Assembly: GCA_001820055.1 (NCBI GenBank)
Contig: MHOK01000020.1
Location: 1-40,228 of the forward strand
From: Candidatus Spechtbacteria bacterium RIFCSPLOWO2_12_FULL_38_22
Lineage (GTDB): Bacteria; Patescibacteriota; Minisyncoccia; Spechtbacterales; 2-12-FULL-38-22
Direction: 5' to 3'
DNA length: 40,228 bases
Shown here: piece by piece, positions 1,071-20,610 of the stretch
Layout: each line of letters begins with the position of its first letter
Numbering within the stretch: position 1 is the first letter of the stretch
Notes under the pieces: generated by a model
Told to the model about the DNA's origin: nothing
The model's database searches: none
The model's input: the letters and a program-made list of their open reading frames with translations, nothing else
Made by a program: the position numbers and the translations under genes

Positions 1071-4000
1071 CTAGGAAGGATTTACGAAGAATCCACCGTC
1101 TAGAGGGAAGCCTTCTGTCAAGGTGTTTGCAATGTCCGCGCCTGCTGTCGTGTCGTCGTCCCAAGAAATGTCGTTTGCGGCATTTGCAATTCTCAACTGG
1201 AAGGTGTCACCGTCTGTTTCGTAGTCAGTTAAGGTCGCAGTTACATAGAACTCAACTGTTGTACCTGCAGAAATAGTAGTGTTCATATTTACTACATCCG
1301 TGGTATCAGTTGGGTCTAAGTTAGTTGAACCTAATGAACCAACTGCTGTTGCCACACCATACTTGTAAACAGTAATGGTATCACCGGCTGAAGCATCGTC
1401 ATCGCTTTGTGTACCTGCAACCGTAAACTCAAGGTTGTGGTTGGTACCATCAAAGATAACGTCTCCCGCGGCATCAGCTGTAATTGTAAAGCGAAGCACT
1501 GTCATTGTAGCGGCAACTAATGTGCCTGATGGAGAAGCTCCACCTGCACAGCTTGCTGTACATAGAGCAAATACTGGCTTTGTCTTTGCAATTGTTGGTG
1601 CATTGAAGTTTGTAGCGGTTATTGGTGTTGGAGTACCCGCGGCTGAAGTAACAATCGCGCCTGAATCCACACCTCTTGCATCAACATCTGATGCAGAGAA
1701 ATCTGTATCACCTGCTACATCCTGAATGTAAAGGGTTGGAGTATGTACTGATGTTGCGCCATTGCTTGTACCGTTAAGGTCTGCAATTACTCGCATTATC
1801 AAGTCCCCATCCTTTGGAACAACTGCTGTTCCTGAAGTAAAGGCGAAGTTTAAGGTTACATCTGCTGATGCGTTAGTGCCAGAGAAATATAGTGGGCCTG
1901 AAACTGTTGTCCAGGCATCACCTACTTTCTTCTGAACATATACGCCCGCAAAGTTACCTACTTCGTTGTTTGATCCATCAGCATCAAGAGCTACTTGCAA
2001 CCTTAGAAGGTCAATTGCTTCATCTGTTGAAGTGAACTTAGCACGTGAGAATTCAACGCTTGTTGTTCCCGTTGCGCCTACCGCAACGTTTCGCGCAAGA
2101 GGAGTTCCAGCATCTACAGCTACAGTTAAGGTTCCCTCTGCTGAGAAGGTCATTGAGCCTGAATCGTCAGCGTCGGTTCCTGTTCCATAAATTGTAGTGT
2201 TGCTTGAAAGACCTGTTGCAACTACGTCGGTTGTTCCTGTTAGATCATCCATACCTATAAAGATGGTGGTGTTTGCGCCTATAACGTTTGCCCTAAGTTC
2301 TACAACTTTAGATGTGTTCTTTGGAACAAGCAAAGCTAGACCAGTAAATGTTACGCTGTCAGGCGTTCCATCTGTCATGGCTGATTTAGTTGTACCAATT
2401 TGTACGCCATCTACATATAGCTGTAGGTTGTTTAGGTCGCCCGTTAGGGCATCTCCGTCTCCATCAAGTGCTGTCGCATCATCTCCGTCAAATGACATAG
2501 ATGTTACGCGGACGTCACCTGAAGTTCCGGCTGTCAAAACTGCTTTGGAAATCACTGCTTGAGCTCCACCAACAACTAATGTTGCGTATGGTACCGGTGA
2601 AAATGCAACGGTTAATGTTTCGGCAACCGCTGTTTGCGCCGTACCTTCAACCTCGTCAGTTGGGTCAACTACTGTTGCTCCTGATGCAACACCTGTAGCT
2701 GTTATATCTTGGTCAATTTGGAAAGCACCAATATCTGAACCCCAATCTGTTGTAGCATCTGTTGGTATATCCGCTGTTACATACAATGTTTGCTTTACAT
2801 CTTTTACAAGGGTCAAGTTAAAGCTAAAACTTGATGTAGTCGTTGGCGATGCTGAAGTTGAACCCAATTGTGTTCCGTCTGCTTTGAATAACTTTACATT
2901 TGAAAAGTCACCTGAGTCGGCATCTGGAGTTCCATCTTCAGAACATGCTGCGGCCTCACAAAGGTTAACTGTCAAAGAGGAAAGAGTCATATCTTCACCA
3001 CTTGCTGTAAAATCAACGCTTAAGAATTTATGTCCGGCAGTTCCCGGTACAACATCTTGAGCTATTGGGTTTGTGGTGCTTGCAACCATTGTTATGGTTC
3101 CAACTGTGTCGTTGGCGTTGTGAGTTACTGTTTCGCCCAATGCGTCAACACCAGTAACAACAACCGCGCCAATATCGCCACCTGACTGAATACCGTCAAC
3201 GCGAATTTCATTAACTCCAATTTCTATTGTTGTCCAGCTTGCTGAAGATGAAATGTCGGCACGCACGTGAATCACGGCGTTACCGCTCTTTGCAATGTCA
3301 AAGAGTCCTGGTGAGTCAAGCCCAGAGGCGTTTGCGCCAAATGTGGCAACTGTACCTGAAAAGCTAGTTGGTGTTCCTATTTGTGTTTCGGTACCTGTAG
3401 CTTCGTCGTATCGATACAATGTTACGTTTGATATGTCCACTGCGCCAGCGCCAGTACCCAATAGGTTAAGTTTCATTCGTGGAATACGAACATCCTCCTC
3501 TGAACCTACAGAAAGTCTCCAAGCAGAGAATAGTTGTTGTGGTGTTCCATTCACGAAATCTTGCGCTGAAGGGTTTGTTGCGCCATTAACCGCTATTGTA
3601 GGCAATGTGCCTTGGCTAATTGTCTGGTTTGCACCAGTTTGCGCGATAAAGGTTGTATTGTTTGAATATGTAATCGTTACTGAACCTCCTGAGTTTCCAC
3701 CAAATGCCGTAACATCTGTTGCTTCTGTAATTTCAAAAGCAACTATTCTTGAGGTTGTAACACCCGAAGCGATGTCTGCATGCGCGTAAACATTTTTTGC
3801 TGTTCCAGCATCAATTACAATTGGGCTGCTTGATAGGTCAAATACTACACGGTCACTGCCATCTAAGGCAGCAACGGTAGGACCTACCTGAACGCCATTT
3901 ATTTTAAGCTTCATGTTTGCTACATCGCTTGAAACAGAAGAACCTACTTCTGTTAAGGCAATTCTTGATACACTGAAACCTTCTACTGAATCAGCGTCAA

Positions 4001-5126
4001 ATGCCCAAGATGCTATTTCCACGTCTGTAGCGCCCGATACAACATCAGCTGCTGCCGGTGTGCTTCGTACGTCAACATCAAATTGACCCACTGCGATACC
4101 CGCAACTGTCATAGCACTACCATAAACTGGAAAACTTCCAGATACGGTTGTTGTTGCTGTAACATCCGCGGCTGAAGCAACACCCAATCGTGGAGCGTTA
4201 CCAACTGTTGCCGCTGGAGATGAAGATGTTGAGTTCAAGCTTGCAGTTACGGTAAGAACTTTGGTCATGCCGGCTGGCACTACCCAGTTCAAACCTGTAA
4301 ATGTTGCCTTGTGGGTTGTCGTGTTCAAAGCTTGGATTCCTCCAAGTTGTGTTGCGCCATCCCAAAGCTTGATGTTTGCGATATCGTTGTCGGAAGCAAG
4401 CCCGCTCCTTGTTACTACAAGGCTTGAAACGGTTGTGTTTGCTCCGCCTGCGAAATTGAACTTACCAAACACGACATCAGTTGCTGATTGAGCAACTCCT
4501 TGCGCGCCTGGTGAGTCTGCTGCTAATGATACGGAAACTCCTGCTCCTGCTGGAACTGTCGTTCCGCCACCATTAACATTTGTTGACCATGTGACTAAGT
4601 TGTCTGTTGCGGTCAACGCTGTCATTGTTGGGTAGAAACTTGGTGAAGCTTCTGTGTGGTTCACTTTGTAAAGTGAATCCCAATCAAGACCTGCCGCTTC
4701 AAACTCGGCGGCTGTCACATTTAAGTGACGACGCTCACCTGTGTCTGAACCTGCGGCTGAAGTGACTGCGTAAACTTTTGGATCAGCTGTTGATCCGTCT
4801 GCGTTCACTTCTAATACCAAGTTTGTGTTTGTGTACATATCAAGTTCTGCTTGTGTAGCAGTCTTGATTGCGCCCCATGATAGATGTCCGTAAGAGTTAA
4901 AAATGTCCGGGTTAAGAATTAACCTCTTAAACATCTTTGCTCCTACATACTTTAGAATGTAGACATCTGGGTTGTCAGCTGTTTTTGCAACATCACCATC
5001 AACAAATGTTGCGGCGTTTGCTTGTAAAGCTGTTGCTAAGTACACAACTCCTGAAAGTGAAATAATAGTTACTAGCGCTGTTAACACTGCTATAACTTTA
5101 TTTACACCTGTTAGTGTGTATGTCAT
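1071..5126 (-). CDS. S-layer-like secreted protein with repeated beta-sandwich domains
   Basis: The 1351-residue product has a signal peptide (residues 1-39, hydrophobic core then LQANA-A). A domain at about 41-165 follows (DVYILKYVG, then P-x-IFNSYGHL-x-W, ending near LYKVN) that is also found at the C terminus of the protease at 8535-10244. From about 200 to 1320 there are roughly seven units of 110-150 residues, each with a D-(I/V)-x-N-x-KL-x(2-4)-G-x-Q-(L/I/V)-G segment and a V-P-x-G-x-x-K-x-(L/V)-x-V-x-A-(D/S)-(I/L) segment. Such units form the cell-surface layers of CPR bacteria. The protein ends in FPLDGGFFVNPS, resembling the PLTGG/PVDGG tails of related proteins. The gene looks less AT-rich than its neighbours by eye. 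It is preceded by a chain of hairpins and followed by a strong terminator. A major coat protein is the likely role; that is inference. Confidence 0.8.
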   Translation of the reverse strand: MTYTLTGVNKVIAVLTALVTIISLSGVVYLATALQANAATFVDGDVAKTADNPDVYILKYVGAKMFKRLILNPDIFNSYGHLSWGAIKTATQAELDMYTNTNLVLEVNADGSTADPKVYAVTSAAGSDTGERRHLNVTAAEFEAAGLDWDSLYKVNHTEASPSFYPTMTALTATDNLVTWSTNVNGGGTTVPAGAGVSVSLAADSPGAQGVAQSATDVVFGKFNFAGGANTTVSSLVVTRSGLASDNDIANIKLWDGATQLGGIQALNTTTHKATFTGLNWVVPAGMTKVLTVTASLNSTSSSPAATVGNAPRLGVASAADVTATTTVSGSFPVYGSAMTVAGIAVGQFDVDVRSTPAAADVVSGATDVEIASWAFDADSVEGFSVSRIALTEVGSSVSSDVANMKLKINGVQVGPTVAALDGSDRVVFDLSSSPIVIDAGTAKNVYAHADIASGVTTSRIVAFEITEATDVTAFGGNSGGSVTITYSNNTTFIAQTGANQTISQGTLPTIAVNGATNPSAQDFVNGTPQQLFSAWRLSVGSEEDVRIPRMKLNLLGTGAGAVDISNVTLYRYDEATGTETQIGTPTSFSGTVATFGANASGLDSPGLFDIAKSGNAVIHVRADISSSASWTTIEIGVNEIRVDGIQSGGDIGAVVVTGVDALGETVTHNANDTVGTITMVASTTNPIAQDVVPGTAGHKFLSVDFTASGEDMTLSSLTVNLCEAAACSEDGTPDADSGDFSNVKLFKADGTQLGSTSASPTTTSSFSFNLTLVKDVKQTLYVTADIPTDATTDWGSDIGAFQIDQDITATGVASGATVVDPTDEVEGTAQTAVAETLTVAFSPVPYATLVVGGAQAVISKAVLTAGTSGDVRVTSMSFDGDDATALDGDGDALTGDLNNLQLYVDGVQIGTTKSAMTDGTPDSVTFTGLALLVPKNTSKVVELRANVIGANTTIFIGMDDLTGTTDVVATGLSSNTTIYGTGTDADDSGSMTFSAEGTLTVAVDAGTPLARNVAVGATGTTSVEFSRAKFTSTDEAIDLLRLQVALDADGSNNEVGNFAGVYVQKKVGDAWTTVSGPLYFSGTNASADVTLNFAFTSGTAVVPKDGDLIMRVIADLNGTSNGATSVHTPTLYIQDVAGDTDFSASDVDARGVDSGAIVTSAAGTPTPITATNFNAPTIAKTKPVFALCTASCAGGASPSGTLVAATMTVLRFTITADAAGDVIFDGTNHNLEFTVAGTQSDDDASAGDTITVYKYGVATAVGSLGSTNLDPTDTTDVVNMNTTISAGTTVEFYVTATLTDYETDGDTFQLRIANAANDISWDDDTTAGADIANTLTEGFPLDGGFFVNPS

Positions 5127-8534: not shown

Positions 8535-10244
8535 CTACAAGGTAGGGACACCTTCTCTATAAAAGTCGTATTCCTTTTGATTAATCTCATAGATTGATGT
8601 CCATTTTCTACTACTTGCTTCAAACTGGCTTGGCGTTATATTAAGCCAGTTTTTCGTACTACCACCCATCCCTATTTCATAAACCTTATAATCCCCTATG
8701 AATTGAACTAAGTACGACTCTTTATAATTATTTAAAATCTCCTCGTCTACTTCTAATATGTTTTCCCACTTTAAATGCCCATAACCGTTAAAAACTTCTG
8801 GCGAAGGTATCCAACGGCGGTAGCCATCTTTTATAACATAAACCCTATCATCACCTTTTGTTCTCAATAAATCTCCATTTTTTATATCGTACGCACCAGA
8901 ACTCATAGAGGCCTCTATGGAAATTGTCCTAAATTTATTTTCCATATTATCAAAATTACTAAGCTTAGTATGGCTTGACAGTACCAAAACAACCGAACTA
9001 ATATCCTGATTAAAGTCAGGGACACTTAACATGCTACCACCACCGCGTACAGTGTGAACGTCTGTCGTGATATCGCCAGCTATGGTTGTTATAATTACTG
9101 CTACTTCAAAAACGTCTTGTTTGTTTAAGGTTTCAAATTTAATATTCAAAAAGTTTGGGTTCCCTAAGTCATATTTTAACGGTATAAACCTATACCACTG
9201 AGGAGAAAAATCCTGTAAAGCCACGCTAATTTTTATTAAATTCGTGTCACCAACGCTAAAGGTGTTTTTTGCGTTTACTCTAAAATTTAAAAAACTTAAT
9301 AGGGGATTTTTATATGCGTATATTTTAGTATCATCAAAATTCTGATTTAAAAATAAAGCTGTGGTCCAGTCTGTATATACTTGAGAAAAATCTCTATTTA
9401 CCCCAAGTTTATTTAGAGCATCTGTTATCGCTGCGCTTCCCACAAAAGAGCTATGCGCTACATGGTAAACTAGGGTGTCGCCATATATATCTGCTAGGTA
9501 GTGTATAAACATGGACACAGAGGCGTAATCCTTAATTTCGTTGTCCCATACGACGAGCGAGTCATTTGGGCTGTTTTTAAAAATACTTAGTCTGCGACTT
9601 AAATAACTTTCAGATCCATCATCAGCTACCACTGTAGAAGCATATTCGCTCAACGCCTCATTTAACCATCTTTCTTCTTTAACGCCGGTTATTCTTTCTT
9701 TTTGATTATAGTTTATAAGATGTTGAAATTCATGAGCCAAAACGGCGGGCAAAATTATATCCCCTACCAACTTTGCATTAATATAAAGCATCTCTCGCTT
9801 GTTTGAGTTTACCGCAAATTGAGAGGTACTTTCATCTTCCGATCTCACATATCCATTAAACTCAGAAGGCATATCTGTAAAATAAATAGTGATTTTGGGA
9901 TCGTTATCTATACCCGGATTCCATTCCGATCCAAAGATACTGCGAACCCTGTCGTATATTTGAGTATCAAACAAATTTCCCGTATTTTGTACTGCCGTGT
10001 TCAAATCTATTTTGCTTTGGTCGGAAAGACTGTTTAAATAGTCCTTTTCTATGTAAAAATGCGCTTTCGCTGAACTATATAAAAAAGTTATTTGTTCATT
10101 TTTATGGCCGTCTGTCTCATATTCAGGATTTACAAAAAAATAAACAGGGTCGTTAATTTGCGCCTGTGAAAAAAAGGGGGCTACAAATGAAACAGCAAAC
10201 AATAAAATTATTGCCGCATATGTTATTTTTTTAATTTTCCTCAT
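8535..10244 (-). CDS. secreted zinc metalloprotease with C-terminal surface domain
   Basis: The 569-residue product has a signal peptide (residues 1-28, ending FFSQAQ). The zinc site HEFQHLINYN is at 171-180 and the third ligand probably Glu196 in ERWLNEALSEYAS, the gluzincin pattern HExxH plus NExxxE; the arrangement resembles family M30 (hyicolysin-like) peptidases. Residues about 330-450 look like a beta-rich domain. Residues 453-569 repeat the domain seen near the N terminus of the S-layer-like protein (GDLLRTKGDDRVYVIKDG, then P-x-VFNGYGHL-x-W). The shared domain suggests that protease and coat protein are held at, or bind, the same surface. The start overlaps the end of galU by 14 nt, so the two are likely co-transcribed. 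A terminator shared with the converging gene follows. Confidence 0.85.
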   Translation of the reverse strand: MRKIKKITYAAIILLFAVSFVAPFFSQAQINDPVYFFVNPEYETDGHKNEQITFLYSSAKAHFYIEKDYLNSLSDQSKIDLNTAVQNTGNLFDTQIYDRVRSIFGSEWNPGIDNDPKITIYFTDMPSEFNGYVRSEDESTSQFAVNSNKREMLYINAKLVGDIILPAVLAHEFQHLINYNQKERITGVKEERWLNEALSEYASTVVADDGSESYLSRRLSIFKNSPNDSLVVWDNEIKDYASVSMFIHYLADIYGDTLVYHVAHSSFVGSAAITDALNKLGVNRDFSQVYTDWTTALFLNQNFDDTKIYAYKNPLLSFLNFRVNAKNTFSVGDTNLIKISVALQDFSPQWYRFIPLKYDLGNPNFLNIKFETLNKQDVFEVAVIITTIAGDITTDVHTVRGGGSMLSVPDFNQDISSVVLVLSSHTKLSNFDNMENKFRTISIEASMSSGAYDIKNGDLLRTKGDDRVYVIKDGYRRWIPSPEVFNGYGHLKWENILEVDEEILNNYKESYLVQFIGDYKVYEIGMGGSTKNWLNITPSQFEASSRKWTSIYEINQKEYDFYREGVPTL

Positions 10245-11106
10245 TAAATTTTTTTAAAAATTCTTTAGCTTGATCTTTTATTTCCGGATGCTCAAGCCCA
10301 ATCTCTAAATTTGCTCTCCAAAAACCAAACGCGCTGCCACAATCATGCCAAATTCCTTCCAATTTTTTACCATAAACCTCACCTTCAACGGCCAATTTAC
10401 CCACGGCTTCTGAAAGATATACTTCCCCATTCTTTTTGGGTTGTTTTTGTATATATTCAAAAACTTTTGAATCTAAAACCATTCTTCCGATGCTGGTTAG
10501 GTTAGAGGGAGCTTCGTGCGATTGAGGTTTTTCTACAACACCCTTAATTTCATATACTCCACTCTCTATTTCTTTACCTTCTATTGAACTATATTTACTT
10601 ATTTGCTCAATTGCAATTTCCATAAGACCCATAACCGAAACTCCATACTTATCATAGACATCTATGAGTTGCCTAAGCGCTGGTTCTGTTTTGGAAACAA
10701 TAACGTCATCGGCGTAAAAAACTGCGAAAGGTTCATCTCCAACAAATTCCCTGCCTCGCAATATCGCGTCTCCATTTCCAATCGGTTCCTCTTGGTGCAC
10801 AAAACTGAAATTTGCCTGCTTATGCAAATGCGCTATCTTTTTTAGTAAATCAAGCTTACCTTTTTTTTCTAAAAACCTCTCCAAACCCTCATCGCGACTA
10901 AAATGTTGAATAACATTTAAACGACTAGGATGAGTAATAAATAAAATATCTGTTATCCCGCTTGCAACTGCTTCCTCAACTAAAAATTCTATAACTGGTT
11001 TATCAACAATTGGTAGCATTTCTTTTGACTGCACTTTTGTCGCAGGTAAAAAACGGGTCCCAAAACCCGCTACAGGTATAATTGCCTTTCTAACCTTTTT
11101 TGCCAT
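10231..11106 (-). CDS. galU: UTP-glucose-1-phosphate uridylyltransferase
   Basis: GalU makes UDP-glucose from glucose-1-phosphate and UTP in the cytoplasm, feeding polysaccharide and glycolipid synthesis. The 291-residue length is normal. The nucleotide-binding signature is intact (AGFGTRFLPATK at residues 13-24, then KEMLPIVDKPVIEF). Other family marks are QEEPIGNGDAIL (about 105-116), FAVFYADDVI (about 127-136, metal-binding Asp), VVEKP at about 190 and the C-terminal GIWHDCGSAFGFWRAN. The gene has a near-leaderless promoter (11116-11144) and overlaps the downstream protease gene by 14 nt. With the rhamnose genes further along it points to a glycosylated cell surface. Confidence 0.95.
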   Translation of the reverse strand: MAKKVRKAIIPVAGFGTRFLPATKVQSKEMLPIVDKPVIEFLVEEAVASGITDILFITHPSRLNVIQHFSRDEGLERFLEKKGKLDLLKKIAHLHKQANFSFVHQEEPIGNGDAILRGREFVGDEPFAVFYADDVIVSKTEPALRQLIDVYDKYGVSVMGLMEIAIEQISKYSSIEGKEIESGVYEIKGVVEKPQSHEAPSNLTSIGRMVLDSKVFEYIQKQPKKNGEVYLSEAVGKLAVEGEVYGKKLEGIWHDCGSAFGFWRANLEIGLEHPEIKDQAKEFLKKFNEEN

Positions 11107-12089: not shown

Positions 12090-12353
12090 CTATAATTCCC
12101 CCTCCAACTGTGTTAATTCTTCTTCTACATCACCTAATTCGCTTTCCAAATCTCCCAAATCTTGCTCAATTATCTGTAAGTCTTGGGTAATTTCCTGTTC
12201 GCTGTCGCCAGTGGTTAAATCTTGCTCTTGTTGCTCCCGTAGAAAGTTTATGTCACGACCCGGACCCCAATAAAAATACCAAGCTACAACAACCAGCAAC
12301 GCCAATACAAAAACCCATGTTAATACGGTTTTATTTTTTATTTTTTTATTCAT
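12090..12353 (-). CDS. small membrane-anchored coiled-coil protein
   Basis: This is an 87-residue protein. A basic N terminus (MNKKIKNKT) is followed by one membrane helix at about 10-29. The rest is an acidic helical tail at about 38-87 rich in Glu, Gln and Leu with heptad-like spacing (LQIIEQDLGDLESELGDVEEELTQLEGEL). The tail would lie outside the membrane and could form a coiled coil. No family is recognised. It begins 30 nt after the coiled-coil gene at 12384-13151, so the two are probably one operon under the promoter at 13183-13211. Confidence 0.7.
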   Translation of the reverse strand: MNKKIKNKTVLTWVFVLALLVVVAWYFYWGPGRDINFLREQQEQDLTTGDSEQEITQDLQIIEQDLGDLESELGDVEEELTQLEGEL

Positions 12354-12383: not shown

Positions 12384-13151
12384 TTAAACTCCTTCATTTT
12401 CTTCTTCTTGTTCTTCCCTATCAGCGGGCGTAGCCGCTTTTATGGCTTCTTTTACCTCCTCAAAAAAATCGTGCAGCTCGTCGCGAACACCCCTAAGCGA
12501 TGTTCTTATTATTTGGTGATCATCCTTAAACTCACCCATGACAGTTCTGAACGCCTCGCCGAACTCTTCTTTTGTTTCTGCGCTAATCGTGTATACTTTT
12601 TCTTTTTGTGAAAGCACCAAGTCTACTGTAACATCGATCTCTGCCCTCAAAGCTTCTGCCAAAACCACCAAAGCATCATACTGATCAGGCTCAAGTGCTT
12701 TATCCGCACGAGTTAAGACCTTATCTAAAATTTCCTCTATTCTTTCTAGGTGCTTCAAATACACACTAGTCAAGTGGTCATTTTTTGCATTCAACATATC
12801 AACCAACTTCTCCATTCTTTCTTGCAAGCGCTGGTCTAACTTCTCCTTAATTTCCAATTTTCTTTCTTCCAACTTTTCCGTAGCTCTTTCCTTTGCCTCT
12901 TCTCTCTTTTGCTCAACTGTTTCCTTTTTTTCTTCTCTCTTTTCTTGCAAATCCTCCTTTCTTTCATCTGTTTCGGTTTTAGTTTCGCCTCGTACGTTTA
13001 TTATCTTTTTTTCCACGCGTTCTTTTGTAACCTCCAGCCTATCTGATTTTTCGCTATCATCATGACTATAAGCAAAAACAGAACCCAAACCAAAGTTAAA
13101 CAGTAAACCAAATATCAAAAATAAACTTAAACCTTTTGAAAAATTTTTCAT
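12384..13151 (-). CDS. exported coiled-coil protein
   Basis: This 255-residue protein has a signal peptide (1-27, LFLIFGLLFNFGLGSVFA). Residues about 35-115 are almost entirely charged (repeats of EKR, EER and KEK), forming a single long helix or coiled coil. Residues about 120-240 are a more ordinary helical bundle (LKHLERIEEILDKVLTRADKAL, VVLAEALRAEIDVTVDLVLSQKEKVYTI). A second acidic tail ends the chain. Proteins of this type, with a signal peptide, a highly charged helix and a helical bundle, are common in CPR genomes and have no known function. A promoter and terminator of the upstream gene overlap just before it. The start is ATG at 13151. Confidence 0.7.
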   Translation of the reverse strand: MKNFSKGLSLFLIFGLLFNFGLGSVFAYSHDDSEKSDRLEVTKERVEKKIINVRGETKTETDERKEDLQEKREEKKETVEQKREEAKERATEKLEERKLEIKEKLDQRLQERMEKLVDMLNAKNDHLTSVYLKHLERIEEILDKVLTRADKALEPDQYDALVVLAEALRAEIDVTVDLVLSQKEKVYTISAETKEEFGEAFRTVMGEFKDDHQIIRTSLRGVRDELHDFFEEVKEAIKAATPADREEQEEENEGV

Positions 13152-14507: not shown

Positions 14508-17500
14508 TTACTCTAAAACGTAAATTTTTAACTCATCTGTAATAGCGTATAACACGCCATCACCTAATACTATGTGTACAATTTCTCCACCCAACTGATA
14601 TGACCAGTTTAATTGGGGATTCGCCGTGGTGGATGTAGATTTTACAGAATACAGTAATCCATCCTCACCCCCAAAATAGACATTATTAGCGTTATCAATA
14701 ACTATCGACGTTGTAATACCGTCTTCAGTTGCATACAAATAATTCATGCTTACCTCATCTTGCACTGTTAATCTATATATAATAGTTTTACCATCTTCGT
14801 AACTATAAACAGCGCCATCATTATCTATAGCCGGAGGTTGTACAATATCTTTCGACGCAAACTGTTTCTTCCATTGCAATGCGCCTTCACTGTTCAAATC
14901 GTATGCCGCAATGCCAAATTTATTTTTAAATTGTTTATACCCCACAAATAATAATCCATCTGTATTAACACTTGGAGAACCTGTCACATCTGTAATGGCG
15001 CTCACCTCCATTTGTGTCTGCCAATTTAATAAGCCGGTACTGGTATCTATCTCTAACAAGTGCCAGCTTACAGGGTCGCTATCTGGCTTAACAACAACAT
15101 ACAATTTTTCATTATACAAAATAGGATCGTACAAATCGTTGATAGAGCTAGCCGTAAATCCGTTATCAAAAATACTTGCCCAATCAATAATCAACCAGTC
15201 TTTTTCCCAATTTAAGTTTCCATCCGCGCTAAATGAGTAAATCTTAGATTTTGTAACAATGTAAATGTTGCCATCTGAATCTACAACTGGATTGGCTGGG
15301 TCTCCCAATAAATTCGTGCTGGAAATAAAACCCCCATCAACACTATTTAAAGCCGTAAACTTATTATCAATTAAATAGATTTTTTGACTATCCTGGGACA
15401 ACACCATATAACTATTGTCTGTATAACTCCACCTTTCTTCGCCGTCAGCCGAATAAGAATAACTTTTTTCGTTAGCGCTTACATATATATTCCCGTCTGA
15501 ATCCACTACTGGCTGTTCTACTAACGAAACTGGCGCTTCCAGTTCTTCACTCCAAATAATCGTAGGCTCTATTGTTGGACCTGTAAATTTACTTAGGCCG
15601 CTATTTGTATACAAATTTTGCCAAGAAGACCATATCGGATCGGCAGAAAAACTTTCAGAATTTTGCTCGCTTTGACTATTTGTGGGCGTAGCATCACCAA
15701 TTGTAAAATCAATAAAATTATTATCCGAATCCCAATGTTGACTGCTGCGATTTACGCTTTCGTTATCATCTGGCGTTTCAGTAGTTCTTGTTTCTTTTAG
15801 AGTTACGTCTTCGTCGTCGCCCCACGCAACAGCGTCCGTTGGTGTTGGGCTGTCTGCTTCTTTTGGATCTTCGCTAAACATAGCAATAGTCCCTTTAGAA
15901 TTTGAGAGTTGCGCAGAGGAATATGGCTGCCAATCTGCATTCGGATTGCTATTTGCAGTTGAATAGCCTTCCAATCCTATTAGATAATACCCTCCTGCAA
16001 AAATAGTGGTATTTTCGGCTTCTGAAAATGATTTGTTGCGATATGGGTCACCCCACTCAACTTTACCAGAAGAGTAATAACTGAAATAGTAATCAGACAA
16101 ATCTATCTCGTCTTCCGTCGGATTATATAACTCTATAAATTCACTGTCTTGGACTTGTACTTCGTTTATTATTAAACTATTTGGCGTTGCATTAGGATAA
16201 GCTGTTGCGATATTAGAAATTTCAGACTGATTCCCTGCTTCATCTTCCGCTTTAATTCCAAAATAATATAAATTCCCCAGCACTAAATCATCAATAACTA
16301 AAATCTCTTCCCCTCCTTCGGTTTGGGGTGTAGTATCTTGGTCATACTCGGTGGCAGCATCCCAATTATCTTGACGTATAACCTCACCGAAATATTTAAC
16401 TATATATTTTACAACTCCCTCGTTGTCTATCACCGCATCCCAATTTAATTTGACACTTCCTCTCTCGTCGCCACTTTGTGCTACAAGATTTGTAATACTA
16501 CTTGGCGCTTCGTTGTCCTCCTCATTATCATTATCATCTTCTTCTTCTTCATCTTCGTCGCCATCATCGTTATCTTCCTCGCCATCATCGTTATCTTCGT
16601 CGCCATCATCGTTATCTTCCTCGTCTTCTTCATCATCCTCGTCATTATCCTGATTTTCATCGCCGTCTTCTTCATTTTGTTCATCTTCGTTTTCGTCATC
16701 ATTTTGATCCTCTTCTTGGTCATCGTCGTCAACAACCACTACATAATTTGACCCTGGGGTAGGAGTTTCTACCAATACAAAATCGTTGTAATTATTATTT
16801 GTATCTGTATGATTTTCATCACGACTTGAGCTAGCGGTTTCTAATAACTCGCCATCGTACGGTTGTCCCTCGTATAAGTTGACCTCATTCCACCCAAAAC
16901 CATCAATTATTTGTCCGCCTGACTCCGGATCGCCAAAAAATAATCCAACCGTTCCGGCGCTATTTGAAAGTTGGTTAGAACTATATGCCTGCCAATCGTA
17001 AGCTCCGCTATAGCCGCCTAACGCTACAACAAAAAAACTAAATGGATTTATTTTAAAAGCTTGCGGAAAATTTTTATTTCGATACGGATCGTTCCAGTTA
17101 ACTTTGCTGGAGGGATAATAACTAAAATAATAATTGCTTAAGTACGTAATTTCGGGGCTGTCATTATACAACTCCACAAACTCTCCCCCGTCCACGGAAA
17201 CTTCATTTATTACAATGTTTGTATTAATAAGCGAAGGCGGATAAACCACCGCGCTGCTAAATTCTTCTTCCGATTTTTTATATTCCTCTACTTTTGTCAA
17301 TTCCGGGTGACAAGTACCTCCCCACAGTCCGTACCTGTTTTCCTTTGCCACATTCTCTATTTTTTCAAAAAGACTAGAAAATTTATGCGTAAAACCAAAA
17401 TCAAAAGCGTACGCATGCCCTGTGTCAACTAAGTTTTTATTTATTAAATTATTGCCATCCCAAACATATCTTAATAACCTGTCGTAACTATCTTTATCAT

Positions 17501-18965
17501 CTGGGCCCGACTCCAAAACTACCTGTTTATTTAATACCAGTTGCTCATTTTGATGTTTTGCTTCTTGCGCAAAACATCCATCTGGCAATTCCGGCGCGTC
17601 AATGCCAATGTATCTAACTCTTTGTCCGTTTTCTAATTCTATCGTGTCCCCGTCTATAACACGGGTAACTGTATGAGATTTTTTAACTTGCGGCGGTAAC
17701 AGTTGTAGTTCTGTTTCTGTCGGTGTTTGCTCTGGCTCTGCTAGTTCTTGCTCAATCTCCACAAGGGTAGGGGGCGCCTGCTCGTCTGTGACGGTTTGAA
17801 AGTCTTGTGATAAAAAACTAATTTGTTGAGCAAAGCTTTCGCCCGCCTTTTTCTCTAAAGCGCTTTGCCGGTTCCCAATTGTGGTATTGTCGCCACTTAC
17901 GGAAGGCGCTCCGGTCTGTAGAACTGCTACTGGAAATGTTTCAAGGTCTAAGCCATGACGTTGAAAAACAAAAGAACTTAAATTGTAAAGATAGCGACCG
18001 CCGGATGCTATAACATTTCCAATTTTCGCAAACGCATTTTTTAAACCTCCCCAAAAACCACTTTTACCTTGCATTTCTTGCTGTGGTAAATCTTTGACAG
18101 TATCCTTAAACAATTTTATGATGCCTGCTGTATTTTCTATGGCAGTGGGAGCAAGACGGTTCCAGTAGTCGCGGAGGACGAGAGGGTCGGAAAAGGCATC
18201 TGCATAAATTTCAAAACTAGAGTCATAAAGTTTTGTTCCTGTCCTACGTATTTTTAGTAATTTATATTCTCCACGGCCGTCTCTCGCGTAAACATAATTG
18301 TTATCAACTCTTACCAAATCAGGTTTTTTATAAAAACCCAAACTGTCTTTGCTTAAAAATTGAGTATTTGTATATTGCGCAACCATATCAAAATAAATAT
18401 CTAAATTATCATACAAAATAGGATTCATACCTGCCATATTTGGCGCGCTAAATTCTTTAACACCTTGCTCGTAAGGGTCAGCTCCGCCATACAACTCATG
18501 AGGGTGAGGATCGTTTCTGGTATGGGCCGGCACTGTCGCATCCTGAATTAAATGCAAAATATGCCCAAGCGTTTTATAAGCATATTCGTAATTGCCCCGA
18601 TTGTATGCCCCGATTGCTTCTTCCCAAGTATAAATACCCATACTTGCCTGCAAATCTTTTCTACGCGCCCATTCTTTAGAACTTTGATAGCCGCTCAATC
18701 CCTTATTGTTTATAGGGTCGTAAAAATGATAAAGCGGACGAGTAAGTGGGCTATCCTCTTGAGCAGAACCTTGCGCTATCCATTGCTTTTGTTGGCTAGT
18801 TAAACTGTCGTCAGAATAAAATTGATTATATAAATCTACGGCGCGCTCTGTTAAAGGAGAGTGCGTGGTATATGGACTATAAGCAATCACATAGAAAAAA
18901 GAGGAGAAAAATATTCCCCCTCCTATCAATATTATTAAAAATACTTTTGATATTTTATGTTTCAT
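14508..18965 (-). CDS. giant exported phospholipase C/nuclease/lamin-tail/propeller protein
   Basis: This is a 1485-residue protein with a signal peptide (1-29). Residues 30-290 resemble zinc-dependent phospholipase C or P1-type nucleases, with likely metal ligands His35, His80, Asp83, then GHILHLIQD-ATVPAHTRND (His138, Asp142, His148) and His156. Residues 431-550 are a staphylococcal-nuclease domain with the catalytic set Asp440, Arg451, Asp456, Glu459 and Arg496. Two lamin-tail domains (about 578-735 and 928-1090) are near copies of each other (YYFSYY and DPYRNK motifs). Between them lie a pure Asp/Glu/Asn/Gly linker (744-819) and a fibronectin III domain (820-922). Residues about 1145-1485 are PQQ-type propeller repeats (VVDSDGNIYV). 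It probably degrades lipids and nucleic acids outside the cell to supply an organism that cannot make them; that is inference. The gene ends in a terminator with repeated arms. Confidence 0.85.
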   Translation of the reverse strand: MKHKISKVFLIILIGGGIFFSSFFYVIAYSPYTTHSPLTERAVDLYNQFYSDDSLTSQQKQWIAQGSAQEDSPLTRPLYHFYDPINNKGLSGYQSSKEWARRKDLQASMGIYTWEEAIGAYNRGNYEYAYKTLGHILHLIQDATVPAHTRNDPHPHELYGGADPYEQGVKEFSAPNMAGMNPILYDNLDIYFDMVAQYTNTQFLSKDSLGFYKKPDLVRVDNNYVYARDGRGEYKLLKIRRTGTKLYDSSFEIYADAFSDPLVLRDYWNRLAPTAIENTAGIIKLFKDTVKDLPQQEMQGKSGFWGGLKNAFAKIGNVIASGGRYLYNLSSFVFQRHGLDLETFPVAVLQTGAPSVSGDNTTIGNRQSALEKKAGESFAQQISFLSQDFQTVTDEQAPPTLVEIEQELAEPEQTPTETELQLLPPQVKKSHTVTRVIDGDTIELENGQRVRYIGIDAPELPDGCFAQEAKHQNEQLVLNKQVVLESGPDDKDSYDRLLRYVWDGNNLINKNLVDTGHAYAFDFGFTHKFSSLFEKIENVAKENRYGLWGGTCHPELTKVEEYKKSEEEFSSAVVYPPSLINTNIVINEVSVDGGEFVELYNDSPEITYLSNYYFSYYPSSKVNWNDPYRNKNFPQAFKINPFSFFVVALGGYSGAYDWQAYSSNQLSNSAGTVGLFFGDPESGGQIIDGFGWNEVNLYEGQPYDGELLETASSSRDENHTDTNNNYNDFVLVETPTPGSNYVVVVDDDDQEEDQNDDENEDEQNEEDGDENQDNDEDDEEDEEDNDDGDEDNDDGEEDNDDGDEDEEEEDDNDNEEDNEAPSSITNLVAQSGDERGSVKLNWDAVIDNEGVVKYIVKYFGEVIRQDNWDAATEYDQDTTPQTEGGEEILVIDDLVLGNLYYFGIKAEDEAGNQSEISNIATAYPNATPNSLIINEVQVQDSEFIELYNPTEDEIDLSDYYFSYYSSGKVEWGDPYRNKSFSEAENTTIFAGGYYLIGLEGYSTANSNPNADWQPYSSAQLSNSKGTIAMFSEDPKEADSPTPTDAVAWGDDEDVTLKETRTTETPDDNESVNRSSQHWDSDNNFIDFTIGDATPTNSQSEQNSESFSADPIWSSWQNLYTNSGLSKFTGPTIEPTIIWSEELEAPVSLVEQPVVDSDGNIYVSANEKSYSYSADGEERWSYTDNSYMVLSQDSQKIYLIDNKFTALNSVDGGFISSTNLLGDPANPVVDSDGNIYIVTKSKIYSFSADGNLNWEKDWLIIDWASIFDNGFTASSINDLYDPILYNEKLYVVVKPDSDPVSWHLLEIDTSTGLLNWQTQMEVSAITDVTGSPSVNTDGLLFVGYKQFKNKFGIAAYDLNSEGALQWKKQFASKDIVQPPAIDNDGAVYSYEDGKTIIYRLTVQDEVSMNYLYATEDGITTSIVIDNANNVYFGGEDGLLYSVKSTSTTANPQLNWSYQLGGEIVHIVLGDGVLYAITDELKIYVLE
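16560..16622. repeat. 21-bp tandem repeat inside the acidic linker
   Basis: Three copies with period 21 (start GCCATCATCG) encode EDNDDG(D/E) units in the linker of the giant exported protein. It is a coding minisatellite likely to vary in copy number. Confidence 0.8.
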
Positions 18966-19019: not shown

Positions 19020-19577
19020 TTAAATACTGCTTATTTTCCAAACTCCCTTTTTGTCACGAATAAATTCTACGGCTTCACTATATCCCTCGAGCGGATTGGG
19101 GCTATCGTTTCCAGGGATAGGTTCCATTTCATAAACTACAGTGCCCTGACCATCGTCGTAGATTTTTTTTGTAAGCGGAGTCATTCTCCCTGCAGCTTCA
19201 TAGAATACACCTTCTTGAGCAGCCTTTCTTAAACCTTCCTCATACTTCCGCAAGTAATCAGGATGAATAGTCGCAAGCACTCCTTCTAAGTCGTTGTTCA
19301 AAAGCGCCTGACGCGCTTCTTCATATGTTTTTTGCGGAGTAGAATCGCCAAATTGCACATTATAAAGATAAAAAACCTGATCACTAATACCTTGGCTCTG
19401 GCTTTCGCGTACACCTACTTCAAACAAAGTTCCGTCCATTCTGTTTAACAAAAAAACGCCCGCAATAACCACGGCCGCCACAAAAACTGTCCATCCCAGC
19501 CAATCAACTCTGAATTTTTTTACTAACTTATTTAATTGCGAACTCCGTCCCTCAATTTTTTGACTTTTTTCCTTCAT
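19020..19577 (-). CDS. membrane-anchored protein with NTF2/DUF4878-like outer domain
   Basis: This is a 185-residue protein. A basic cytoplasmic tail (1-27) leads into one membrane helix (WTVFVAAVVIAGVFLLN, about 29-45). The outer part (about 80-185) has a helix YEEARQALLNNDLEGVLATIHPDYLRKYEEGLRKAAQEG, then strands with VVYEMEPIPG and a final KKGVWKISSI. This helix-then-strands order, ending in a W-K-I strand, recalls DUF4878 or NTF2-like folds; the match is weak. It is 54 nt upstream of the giant exported protein gene on the same strand, so the two may be co-expressed and both act outside the cell. Confidence 0.55.
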   Translation of the reverse strand: MKEKSQKIEGRSSQLNKLVKKFRVDWLGWTVFVAAVVIAGVFLLNRMDGTLFEVGVRESQSQGISDQVFYLYNVQFGDSTPQKTYEEARQALLNNDLEGVLATIHPDYLRKYEEGLRKAAQEGVFYEAAGRMTPLTKKIYDDGQGTVVYEMEPIPGNDSPNPLEGYSEAVEFIRDKKGVWKISSI

Positions 19578-19974: not shown

Positions 19975-20610
19975 CTATTTTATTCTTAAAAAAAATCCCA
20001 ATTTTTGAAAATGTCTTTTTACTCCAAAATCTCTATTGATATTTCCTGTAAAAATCAGAACGTGGCGCCTAATCTCAAAATATTCGCATAAAAGATCTAT
20101 TTCCTTTTCGCAAGAATAAGGAAATAGATATACGCTTTGTTGAATTCTAAAAAATTCTAAAGTTTCCAACTTGCCCCGCAGAGCATCACGGCAATATCTT
20201 TGCTTTTCCGGTATATCAAATACTATAAAACGCCATTTACCATCCCATTTTTGTTTCTTAGATATCCTTAAATCATCAACTTGATAACCTTGCACTATTT
20301 CTTTTCCTTTTTTTGTTAGCTCAAAACGTATCTCTGTTTTATCTTTGGAGTAAATATATTTTATATATTCCCTATTTTTTAAACTATATAAACTTCGACG
20401 AATTTTGTTTTCATCTATTTCTTCGTCTGGTGGAAATAAAAAATCTTCCAAAGCATCTAAATTATCTTCAGCATTTTTTGCCCAATTGGTGGTTGTAGAA
20501 AATGGTGTGGTAGCAACAACCAAAGGAGTTGAAAGAGCTAAAAGAATTTTTTTAGCCACGACACCATGTCGCCCTTGAAGTGGTTTTTCATAATGGGTTG
20601 GTTTCGACAT
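19975..20610 (-). CDS. HTH plus Cas2-fold (PaaX-like) protein
   Basis: This is a 211-residue protein. Residues 15-112 hold a winged-helix region (KIRRSLYSLKNREYIKYIYSK then ELTKKGKEIV). Residues about 120-205 form a Cas2-like ferredoxin fold with the marks KWRFIVFDIPEKQR (a strand ending in the Asp that in Cas2 binds metal), LRGKLETLEFFRIQQSVYLFPYSC and the closing strand HVLIFTG. This is the layout of PaaX-type regulators and of the many stand-alone proteins called Cas2 in CPR genomes. There is no cas1, no other cas gene and no repeat-spacer array here, so a CRISPR role is unlikely. Binding or cutting of DNA palindromes would suit the fold and the setting: the gene is bracketed by two related perfect palindromes. 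That link is inference. Confidence 0.75.
   Translation of the reverse strand: MSKPTHYEKPLQGRHGVVAKKILLALSTPLVVATTPFSTTTNWAKNAEDNLDALEDFLFPPDEEIDENKIRRSLYSLKNREYIKYIYSKDKTEIRFELTKKGKEIVQGYQVDDLRISKKQKWDGKWRFIVFDIPEKQRYCRDALRGKLETLEFFRIQQSVYLFPYSCEKEIDLLCEYFEIRRHVLIFTGNINRDFGVKRHFQKLGFFLRIK

What the first reader, a model, noticed from the sequence alone, without database searches (positions are those of the whole stretch)
14508..18965. Exported protein joining phospholipase C-like, nuclease, lamin-tail, fibronectin and propeller domains
One 1485-residue chain contains a zinc-PLC/P1-like site (GHILHLIQD and AHT-R-ND), a complete SNase active site (Asp440, Arg451, Asp456, Glu459, Arg496), two near-copy lamin-tail domains, a long acidic linker, FN3 and a PQQ-type propeller. 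I know of no described protein with this set. CPR bacteria generally lack lipid and nucleotide synthesis and depend on other cells, so a secreted enzyme that opens membranes and digests nucleic acids would fit a scavenging or predatory role.
Basis: partly seen in the sequence, partly recalled or inferred. Interest (0 to 1): 0.75.

Follow-up and report, generated by a model that had tools for sequence, protein, structure and literature searches.

The report
Secreted phospholipase-nuclease protein with membrane partner
A tiny host-dependent bacterium carries a large exported protein that joins a membrane-lipid-cutting-type enzyme to a DNA/RNA-cutting enzyme, and its relatives show that this is one version of a widespread, previously undescribed (as far as I could find) two-gene system with interchangeable front-end domains, probably used on the membranes of other cells.

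Summary
The 1485-aa ORF is real, and its domains are real apart from a weak FN3. The N-terminal domain is a distant relative of zinc-dependent phospholipase C (PLC). An AlphaFold model (pLDDT 86) matches Listeria PlcB and B. cereus PLC (Foldseek E about 1e-5, probability 1.0). S1/P1 nucleases match only at E>=0.29. Putative metal-ligand positions are invariant in 34 relatives. An assembly fusion is excluded: PLC-SNase fusions recur in five other loci, and one (L116) is PLC-SNase-LTD-PQQ.

The larger finding is that the head defines a class-wide family (108 of 384 genomes). It sits on a variable chassis of LTD, beta-helix or propeller, and sometimes SNase. A small one-TM protein with an NTF2-like domain is encoded directly upstream in 100 of 104 loci; in the window this is 19020-19577. 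In a relative of the same order, the same SNase-LTD-PQQ chassis at the same genomic position carries a different, weakly NLP-like head. All five loci of that head type with upstream sequence have a different, multi-TM partner.

Best reading: secreted membrane-attack or scavenging effectors with exchangeable heads, each paired with its own membrane partner (immunity or chaperone). Fold, linkage and module exchange are shown. Catalysis, targets and partner function are inferred. 'New variant of a known kind'.

The parts
14508..18965 (-). Whole ORF, 1485 aa exported multidomain protein
   Evidence: relatives with long uninterrupted frames in 108/384 genomes
18882..18965 (-). Signal peptide, residues 1-28; predicted cleavage before Tyr29
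   Evidence: only strong hydrophobic segment; small residues at -3/-1 before an aromatic (Y/F 34/34) in the family; cleavage inferred, not tested
18096..18881 (-). Zn-phospholipase-C-like head, residues 29-290; invariant H35 E70 D71 H80 H138 D142 H148 H154 E166
17316..17684 (-). Staphylococcal-nuclease domain, residues 428-550, active-site residues complete
   Evidence: Pfam E 8.7e-14, residues checked, PADLOC 'SNc+LTD' E 2.8e-22
16746..17222 (-). Lamin tail domain 1, residues 582-740
16506..16739 (-). Acidic linker, residues 743-820 (71% Asp/Glu)
16194..16505 (-). FN3-like domain, residues 821-924
   Evidence: not hit by Pfam here; matches L117 525-625 (E 7.6e-20), which hits fn3 weakly (E 0.002)
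15726..16193 (-). Lamin tail domain 2, residues 925-1080
   Evidence: 46% identical to LTD1
14511..15680 (-). BamB/PQQ-type beta-propeller, residues 1096-1485
   Evidence: PQQ_2 E 1.2e-11; PDB propeller matches E down to 2e-16
19020..19577 (-). Cognate partner: 185 aa, one N-terminal TM helix then NTF2-like domain (outside by positive-inside charge), ends 54 nt before the large gene
   Evidence: hit E 2.4e-11 by an HMM built without it; directly upstream in 100/104 loci; AlphaFold pLDDT 80, NTF2-like best matches
10231..11106 (-). GalU-like nucleotidyltransferase; syntenic marker beside the exported-protein locus in the order
   Evidence: GalU name from sequence, not from a family search
1071..5126 (-). 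Candidate S-layer-like protein, syntenic part of the same surface locus

Best explanation
The gene pair 19020-19577 and 14508-18965 encodes a secreted membrane-active effector and its cognate membrane partner. The large protein is exported by its signal peptide. The mature N-terminus (Tyr29) and the invariant His/Asp/Glu set form a PLC-type multi-zinc site that cleaves phosphate-ester head groups of lipids in a neighbouring or host cell. The SNase domain degrades DNA/RNA that becomes accessible. The LTDs, FN3-like domain and propeller act as an extended scaffold that holds the enzymes at a surface (own S-layer, host envelope or nucleic acid). Products (diacylglycerol, nucleotides) would feed a cell that probably makes neither lipids nor nucleotides itself. 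The upstream NTF2-like protein sits in the producer's own membrane facing outward and binds the head, either neutralising it (immunity) or assisting its export and folding. Heads are exchanged on a common chassis together with their partner gene. SHOWN: domains, fold relationship, invariant ligand set, linkage, co-occurrence, different head on the same chassis at a syntenic site, SNase-module exchange. INFERRED: zinc content, lipid cleavage, target cells, scaffold role, partner function.
For: Head fold: Foldseek E 8.5e-6, probability 1.0, to Listeria PlcB and B. cereus PLC; the first 17 matches are all zinc PLCs. Profile match to B. cereus PLC aligns its ligands H118, D122, H128 and E146 with H138, D142, H148 and E166. 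Ligand columns are invariant in 34/34. PLC-SNase fusion recurs in L114, L115, L116, L174 and L199. Upstream partner directly adjacent and co-oriented in 100/104 non-redundant loci; genome-level co-occurrence 100 of 108 heads and 109 partners in 384 genomes, Fisher p 6e-71 (not corrected for phylogeny). Head swap: G004 (L094) has the same SNase-LTD-PQQ chassis (SNase 53%, LTD-PQQ 32% identity) beside GalU at the syntenic position with an unrelated head. Such heads (L094, L240-L243) have a multi-TM partner directly upstream (5/5) and never the NTF2 partner. Fused SNases cluster (6 of 7; window+L114+G004 99/96) while their heads are scattered (at least 4 changes). Literature: CPR lack complete lipid synthesis and derive lipids from others (PMC7242380); NTF2-fold immunity proteins, and a Het-C toxin domain related to Zn-PLC, are known in polymorphic toxin systems (PMC3482391).
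Against: No activity data and no zinc evidence. The partner is upstream, whereas immunity genes more often follow their toxin. Heads are one conserved family across the class, less polymorphic than typical toxin cassettes. Most of the family lacks SNase, so the nuclease is an accessory and not the core function. Nine genomes have the partner without a detected head.
Confidence: 0.5

Rival explanations
1. Nutrient-acquisition enzyme without antagonism: a surface or secreted phospholipase plus nuclease that digests lipids and nucleic acids of dead cells, with the upstream NTF2-like protein as a head-specific export or folding factor rather than immunity.
For: Enzymes of this kind fit scavenging; SNase is an optional module (6 of 90 complete proteins); extracellular LTD nucleases are known (ExeM, PMC6085458); CPR lipids are thought to come from other cells (PMC7242380); partner upstream and overlapping the next gene suits a chaperone.
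Against: Two unrelated heads each having a different membrane partner is what cognate immunity or specificity would produce; a single-TM NTF2-like protein and a 5-7 TM protein are unlikely to do the same chaperone job.
Confidence: 0.3
2. The PLC-type head acts on the producer's own envelope or on a phosphorylated surface glycan/teichoic-type polymer (remodelling or S-layer attachment), and the repeat chassis is a structural surface protein.
For: Surface locus with S-layer-like protein and GalU; chassis domains are typical surface scaffolds; an S-layer-like homolog lies within about 6 kb in 9 of 79 loci.
Against: S-layer-like adjacency is not general; presence is patchy (about 28% of genomes), so it is not a housekeeping function; fusion to an intact SNase makes little sense for envelope remodelling.
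Confidence: 0.12
3. The head is a nuclease of the S1/P1 type, making the protein a double nuclease.
For: S1/P1 nucleases share the fold superfamily and the HxxxD...H ligand spacing; weak Foldseek hits (E 0.29 and worse).
Against: All strong structural and profile matches are to phospholipases.
Confidence: 0.06
4. Catalytically dead adhesin that kept the fold.
For: H142 equivalent missing; Pfam score below cut-off.
Against: All other ligand columns are invariant across 28-39% identity; the SNase site is intact.
Confidence: 0.05

Closest known systems
Zinc-dependent phospholipase C (Pfam PF00882; B. cereus PC-PLC, Listeria PlcB, clostridial alpha-toxin)
   Same: Predicted fold, HxxxDxxxxxH core, E after it, D and H upstream, predicted N-terminal aromatic after signal cleavage
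   Different: 13-20% identity in structural alignments, H142 ligand displaced, inserts, long C-terminal chassis instead of a stand-alone enzyme or C2-like domain, nearly obligate upstream partner
Secreted SNase-LTD proteins (PADLOC PDLC01096 'SNc+LTD'; NCBIfam thermonuclease NucI) and LTD extracellular nucleases such as Shewanella ExeM
   Same: SNase followed by LTD on an exported chain; LTD beside a nuclease is known
   Different: No phospholipase head, propeller or partner gene is described for these; ExeM uses other nuclease domains
Polymorphic toxin / immunity systems (Zhang et al. 2012, PMC3482391)
   Same: Exchangeable enzymatic domain on a shared chassis, adjacent cognate partner, NTF2-fold immunity families known, Het-C toxin domain related to Zn-PLC, MAFA-MAFB pair has an upstream surface partner
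   Different: Variable head is N-terminal, not C-terminal; partner is upstream; no dedicated secretion-system domain; chassis varies as well as the head
Secreted phospholipase proposed in Vampirococcus lugosii and Gracilibacteria (PMC8080830, PMC9530719)
   Same: Same proposed ecological use of a secreted phospholipase by a CPR epibiont
   Different: Domain architecture not stated in the passages read; no fused nuclease or partner described there
NLP / NPP1 necrosis-inducing-like proteins (Pfam PF05630)
   Same: The alternative head in L094/L117/L240-L243 carries HYGDWE (HYSDWE in L241) in place of GHRHDWE; 5/6 weak NPP1 hits (best E 0.025), sole PDB hit an NLP (E 0.31)
   Different: All hits are weak; relationship suggestive only; not present in the window

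Membership tests
Zn_dep_PLPC (PF00882) | Profile score above curated cut-off | tested here: not met
   Window 14.2-17.6 bits vs 26.8; a family relative, L032, passes at 27.9
Zn_dep_PLPC (PF00882) | All-alpha Zn-PLC fold | tested here: met
   AlphaFold pLDDT 86, pTM 0.84; Foldseek E about 1e-5, probability 1.0 to PLCs
Zn_dep_PLPC (PF00882) | Zinc ligands corresponding to H118, D122, H128, H142, E146 of B. cereus PLC | tested here: inconclusive
   Four aligned and invariant (H138, D142, H148, E166); H142 not matched, invariant H154 nearby
Zn_dep_PLPC (PF00882) | Mature N-terminal aromatic residue as zinc ligand | tested here: inconclusive
   Y/F in 34/34 after a plausible A-x-A cleavage site; processing not measured
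Zn_dep_PLPC (PF00882) | Phospholipid hydrolysis | not testable with these tools
   needs assay
Staphylococcal nuclease (PF00565) | Profile score and D21, R35, D40, E43, R87 equivalents | tested here: met
   52.3 bits vs 21; D440, R451, D456, E459, R496 present
S1/P1 nuclease | Fold and sequence match better than to PLC | tested here: not met
   E 0.29 and worse, after 17 PLC hits
Polymorphic toxin system | Exchangeable effector domain on a shared chassis | tested here: met
   Different head at syntenic locus and on shared chassis; SNase exchange
Polymorphic toxin system | Adjacent cognate immunity gene that changes with the toxin | tested here: inconclusive
   Adjacent partner changes with head (100/104 and 5/5); immunity activity untested and gene is upstream
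Polymorphic toxin system | Toxicity to other cells | not testable with these tools
   needs expression test
NTF2-like immunity or accessory protein (partner) | NTF2-like fold | tested here: inconclusive
   Model pLDDT 80; best Foldseek hits are mostly NTF2-like but E only 0.02-0.5; profile hits to designed NTF2 folds E 1.6e-4; DUF4878 hits in 35/58 members. Consistent, not strong

The most novel reading that the evidence does not exclude
A class-wide effector system of Paceibacteria: exported proteins with interchangeable membrane-active N-terminal heads (Zn-PLC-like; weakly NLP-like), an optional nuclease and a swappable adhesive chassis, each head inherited with its own cognate membrane partner that protects the producer. 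This would be a host-attack counterpart of polymorphic toxin systems, built on signal-peptide export and serving lipid and nucleotide capture from host cells.
Probability: 0.38. Interest if true: 0.85.

Novelty: new variant of a known kind. Interest (0 to 1): 0.68.

Why it matters
How Patescibacteria obtain lipids and nucleotides from other cells is an open question; phospholipases have been proposed to open host envelopes (PMC11665869, PMC8080830) and their lipids are thought to come from other cells (PMC7242380), but I found no defined machinery described. This work names a concrete, widespread two-gene unit with a recognisable enzyme site, an easily searched partner gene and a natural head-swap experiment, so the idea can be tested by expression in laboratory strains and by localisation in the few Paceibacteria co-cultures. 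It also gives a marker for which lineages use it (about 28% of sampled genomes of the class).

Tried and rejected
Assembly fusion of two genes: rejected, the fusion recurs in five independent loci. P1/S1 nuclease reading: rejected on fold. 'Unique architecture': rejected, L116 shows the same domain types. Phage or plasmid origin: no tblastn match in either collection. Viral fold library: no match below E 0.4. S-layer gene as a constant neighbour: only 9/79 loci, so a feature of some lineages only. Anti-phage defence: only the SNase part hits a PADLOC 'SNc+LTD' model, which I take as domain similarity. The phylum sample outside the class gave only three weak hits, although the GTDB scan names Magasanikbacteria and Falkowbacteria carriers. 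Window FN3: no Pfam hit. Direct measurement of ligand clustering: not possible, the tool returns no coordinates.
Full report
WHAT IS THERE. The ORF 14508-18965(-) is open for 1485 codons with an N-terminal signal sequence and no other membrane segment. Pfam confirms SNase, two LTD stretches and a PQQ_2/BamB propeller above curated cut-offs, and Zn_dep_PLPC only weakly. PDB sequence search agrees for the propeller and nuclease. The SNase catalytic residues are intact. The LTDs are 46% identical to each other, so 'near-copy' is too strong. The FN3-like stretch is not recognised by Pfam in this protein.

THE HEAD. Residues 1-296 found homologs in 45 of 142 related genomes, most of them in very long frames. 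Aligning 34 of them shows invariant H35, G66, E70, D71, R76, H80, G134, H138, D142, P146, H148, R150, H154 and E166, at 28-39% identity to the window sequence. AlphaFold2 on that alignment gave pLDDT 86, pTM 0.84. Foldseek against the PDB returned 17 zinc phospholipases C first (best E 8.5e-6, probability 1.0); S1/P1 nucleases start at E 0.29. The family profile matches B. cereus PLC and Listeria PlcB by sequence (E 1.5e-4 and 2e-4). It aligns PLC ligands H118, D122, H128 and E146 to H138, D142, H148 and E166, while PLC's H142 is not matched. Position 29 is Tyr/Phe in 34/34, usually following small residues at -3 and -1. This would place an aromatic at the mature N-terminus, as Trp1 does in B. 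cereus PLC (my knowledge). One relative, L032, passes the Pfam cut-off (27.9 against 26.8 bits).

THE FAMILY. In 384 genomes of the class, 108 carry the head. A GTDB scan found 302 relatives, and nearly all of the best 80 are in named Patescibacteria or unnamed MAGs; one is labelled Bacillota, possibly misbinned. Outside the class, within the phylum, I found only weak hits. Of 90 complete non-redundant proteins (median 1267 aa), 81 have LTD, 50 a right-handed beta-helix, 7 the propeller and 6 the SNase (counts from profiles built here). So the commonest form is head + LTD + beta-helix, often with an Ig- or FN3-like domain; the window protein is a rarer SNase/propeller form. The six SNase-bearing heads are the window, L114, L115, L116, L174 and L199. 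L116 is PLC-SNase-LTD-PQQ, the same set as the window without the second LTD and FN3. An assembly fusion is therefore excluded.

MODULE EXCHANGE. On a tree of 108 heads the SNase-bearing ones are scattered (6 changes; starred branches force at least 4; quick method). On a tree of 44 SNase domains, six of seven fused SNases group together (82/86), with window, L114 and G004 at 99/96. G004 belongs to the window's order. Its 1277-aa protein (L094) has the same SNase-LTD-PQQ chassis (SNase 53% identity, LTD-to-propeller 32%), but its first 300 residues are unrelated to the PLC head. Both genes lie in the same surface locus: S-layer-like protein, small genes, GalU, then the large gene. A contig end in G006 shows a propeller C-terminus at the same position; G002, of the same family, lacks the gene there. 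So the head was exchanged, or chassis and head were recombined, at a fixed locus.

THE PARTNER GENE. Clustering all neighbours of 79 GTDB loci gave one family present in 74, always co-oriented and, apart from one extra copy in L185, directly upstream, mostly overlapping or within about 150 nt. Counting all non-redundant loci with at least 500 nt upstream, 100 of 104 have it; three of the exceptions are very divergent heads. An HMM built without the window sequence hits window 19020-19577 at E 2.4e-11. In 384 genomes head and partner co-occur in 100 (108 heads, 109 strong partners; Fisher p 6e-71, not phylogeny-corrected). The partner has one TM helix, positive residues before it, and a domain that looks NTF2-like (DUF4878 weakly in 35/58). 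It is less conserved than the head (mean column identity 25% against 35%; different row sets).

THE OTHER HEAD TYPE. A search with the L094/L117 heads found six clear carriers in 384 genomes, none of them with the PLC head. Five have upstream sequence. All five have, directly upstream, a 5-7 TM protein of one family (28-44% identity); none has the NTF2-like partner, and that multi-TM family was found beside no PLC head. Their chassis again consists of FN3, LTD, propeller, beta-helix or SNase. The head hits NPP1 weakly in 5 of 6 members (best E 0.025) and its only PDB hit is an NLP (E 0.31), around HYGDWE/GHRHDWE. This is suggestive only.

MECHANISM. The simplest account is an exported effector whose N-terminal head acts on membranes of other cells, with an optional nuclease, held by an extended surface-binding chassis, and a cognate membrane partner that protects the producer or helps the head fold or export. 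Two unrelated heads each bringing a different membrane partner favours immunity, or at least head-specific cognacy, over a generic chaperone. NTF2-fold immunity proteins exist, the Het-C toxin domain is related to Zn-PLC, and MAFA-MAFB shows an upstream surface partner (PMC3482391). CPR cells lack complete lipid synthesis and are rich in lysolipids thought to come from others (PMC7242380). A secreted phospholipase was proposed to disrupt host membranes and supply lipids in Vampirococcus (PMC8080830), and Paceibacteria parasitising methanogens express extracellular enzymes and deform host cells (PMC10936435). LTD-containing extracellular nucleases are known, with LTD suggested to direct proteins to membranes (PMC6085458) or to bind DNA (PMC4486849). 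Catalysis, targets and partner role are not shown.

NOVELTY. The components are known; the class-wide two-gene unit, head-partner cognacy and PLC-SNase-LTD-propeller set were not found in ten searches of the open-access library. That library lacks most subscription papers, so absence is weak evidence.

Noticed in passing
window 1071-5126 (-): 1351-aa Ig-like-repeat protein with GC about 45% against 36% around it and no Pfam hit; 55% identical homolog in G006 and partial homologs in other genomes of the order: candidate highly expressed S-layer protein. Window 8535-10244 shares a domain with it.
   Followed up: partly
L094 2537-6370, L240-L243, L117: Second exported-protein head family (weakly NPP1/NLP-like, HYGDWE motif) with an upstream 5-7 TM protein in all five testable loci; worth its own study.
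   Followed up: partly
window 12384-13151 (-): Exported coiled-coil protein (weak apolipoprotein-like Pfam hit), with a homolog at the syntenic place in G002 (L226 10426-11118).
   Followed up: no
window 12090-12353 (-): 87-aa ORF with TM and acidic tail gives a weak hit (E 7e-4) to the partner-family HMM; probably the TM segment only.
   Followed up: no
G000:C16:10779-11078 (L097 2693-3499): The same genome has a separate 268-aa LTD protein with an apparent signal peptide and C-terminal TM segment.
   Followed up: no
window 19975-20610 (-): PaaX central Cas2-like domain protein (Pfam E 1e-20) next to the pair; role unknown.
   Followed up: no
L104, L105 and other standalone SNase matches: Several matches of the SNase query in the class contain in-frame stop codons, possibly match extensions beyond gene ends or decaying genes.
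   Followed up: no
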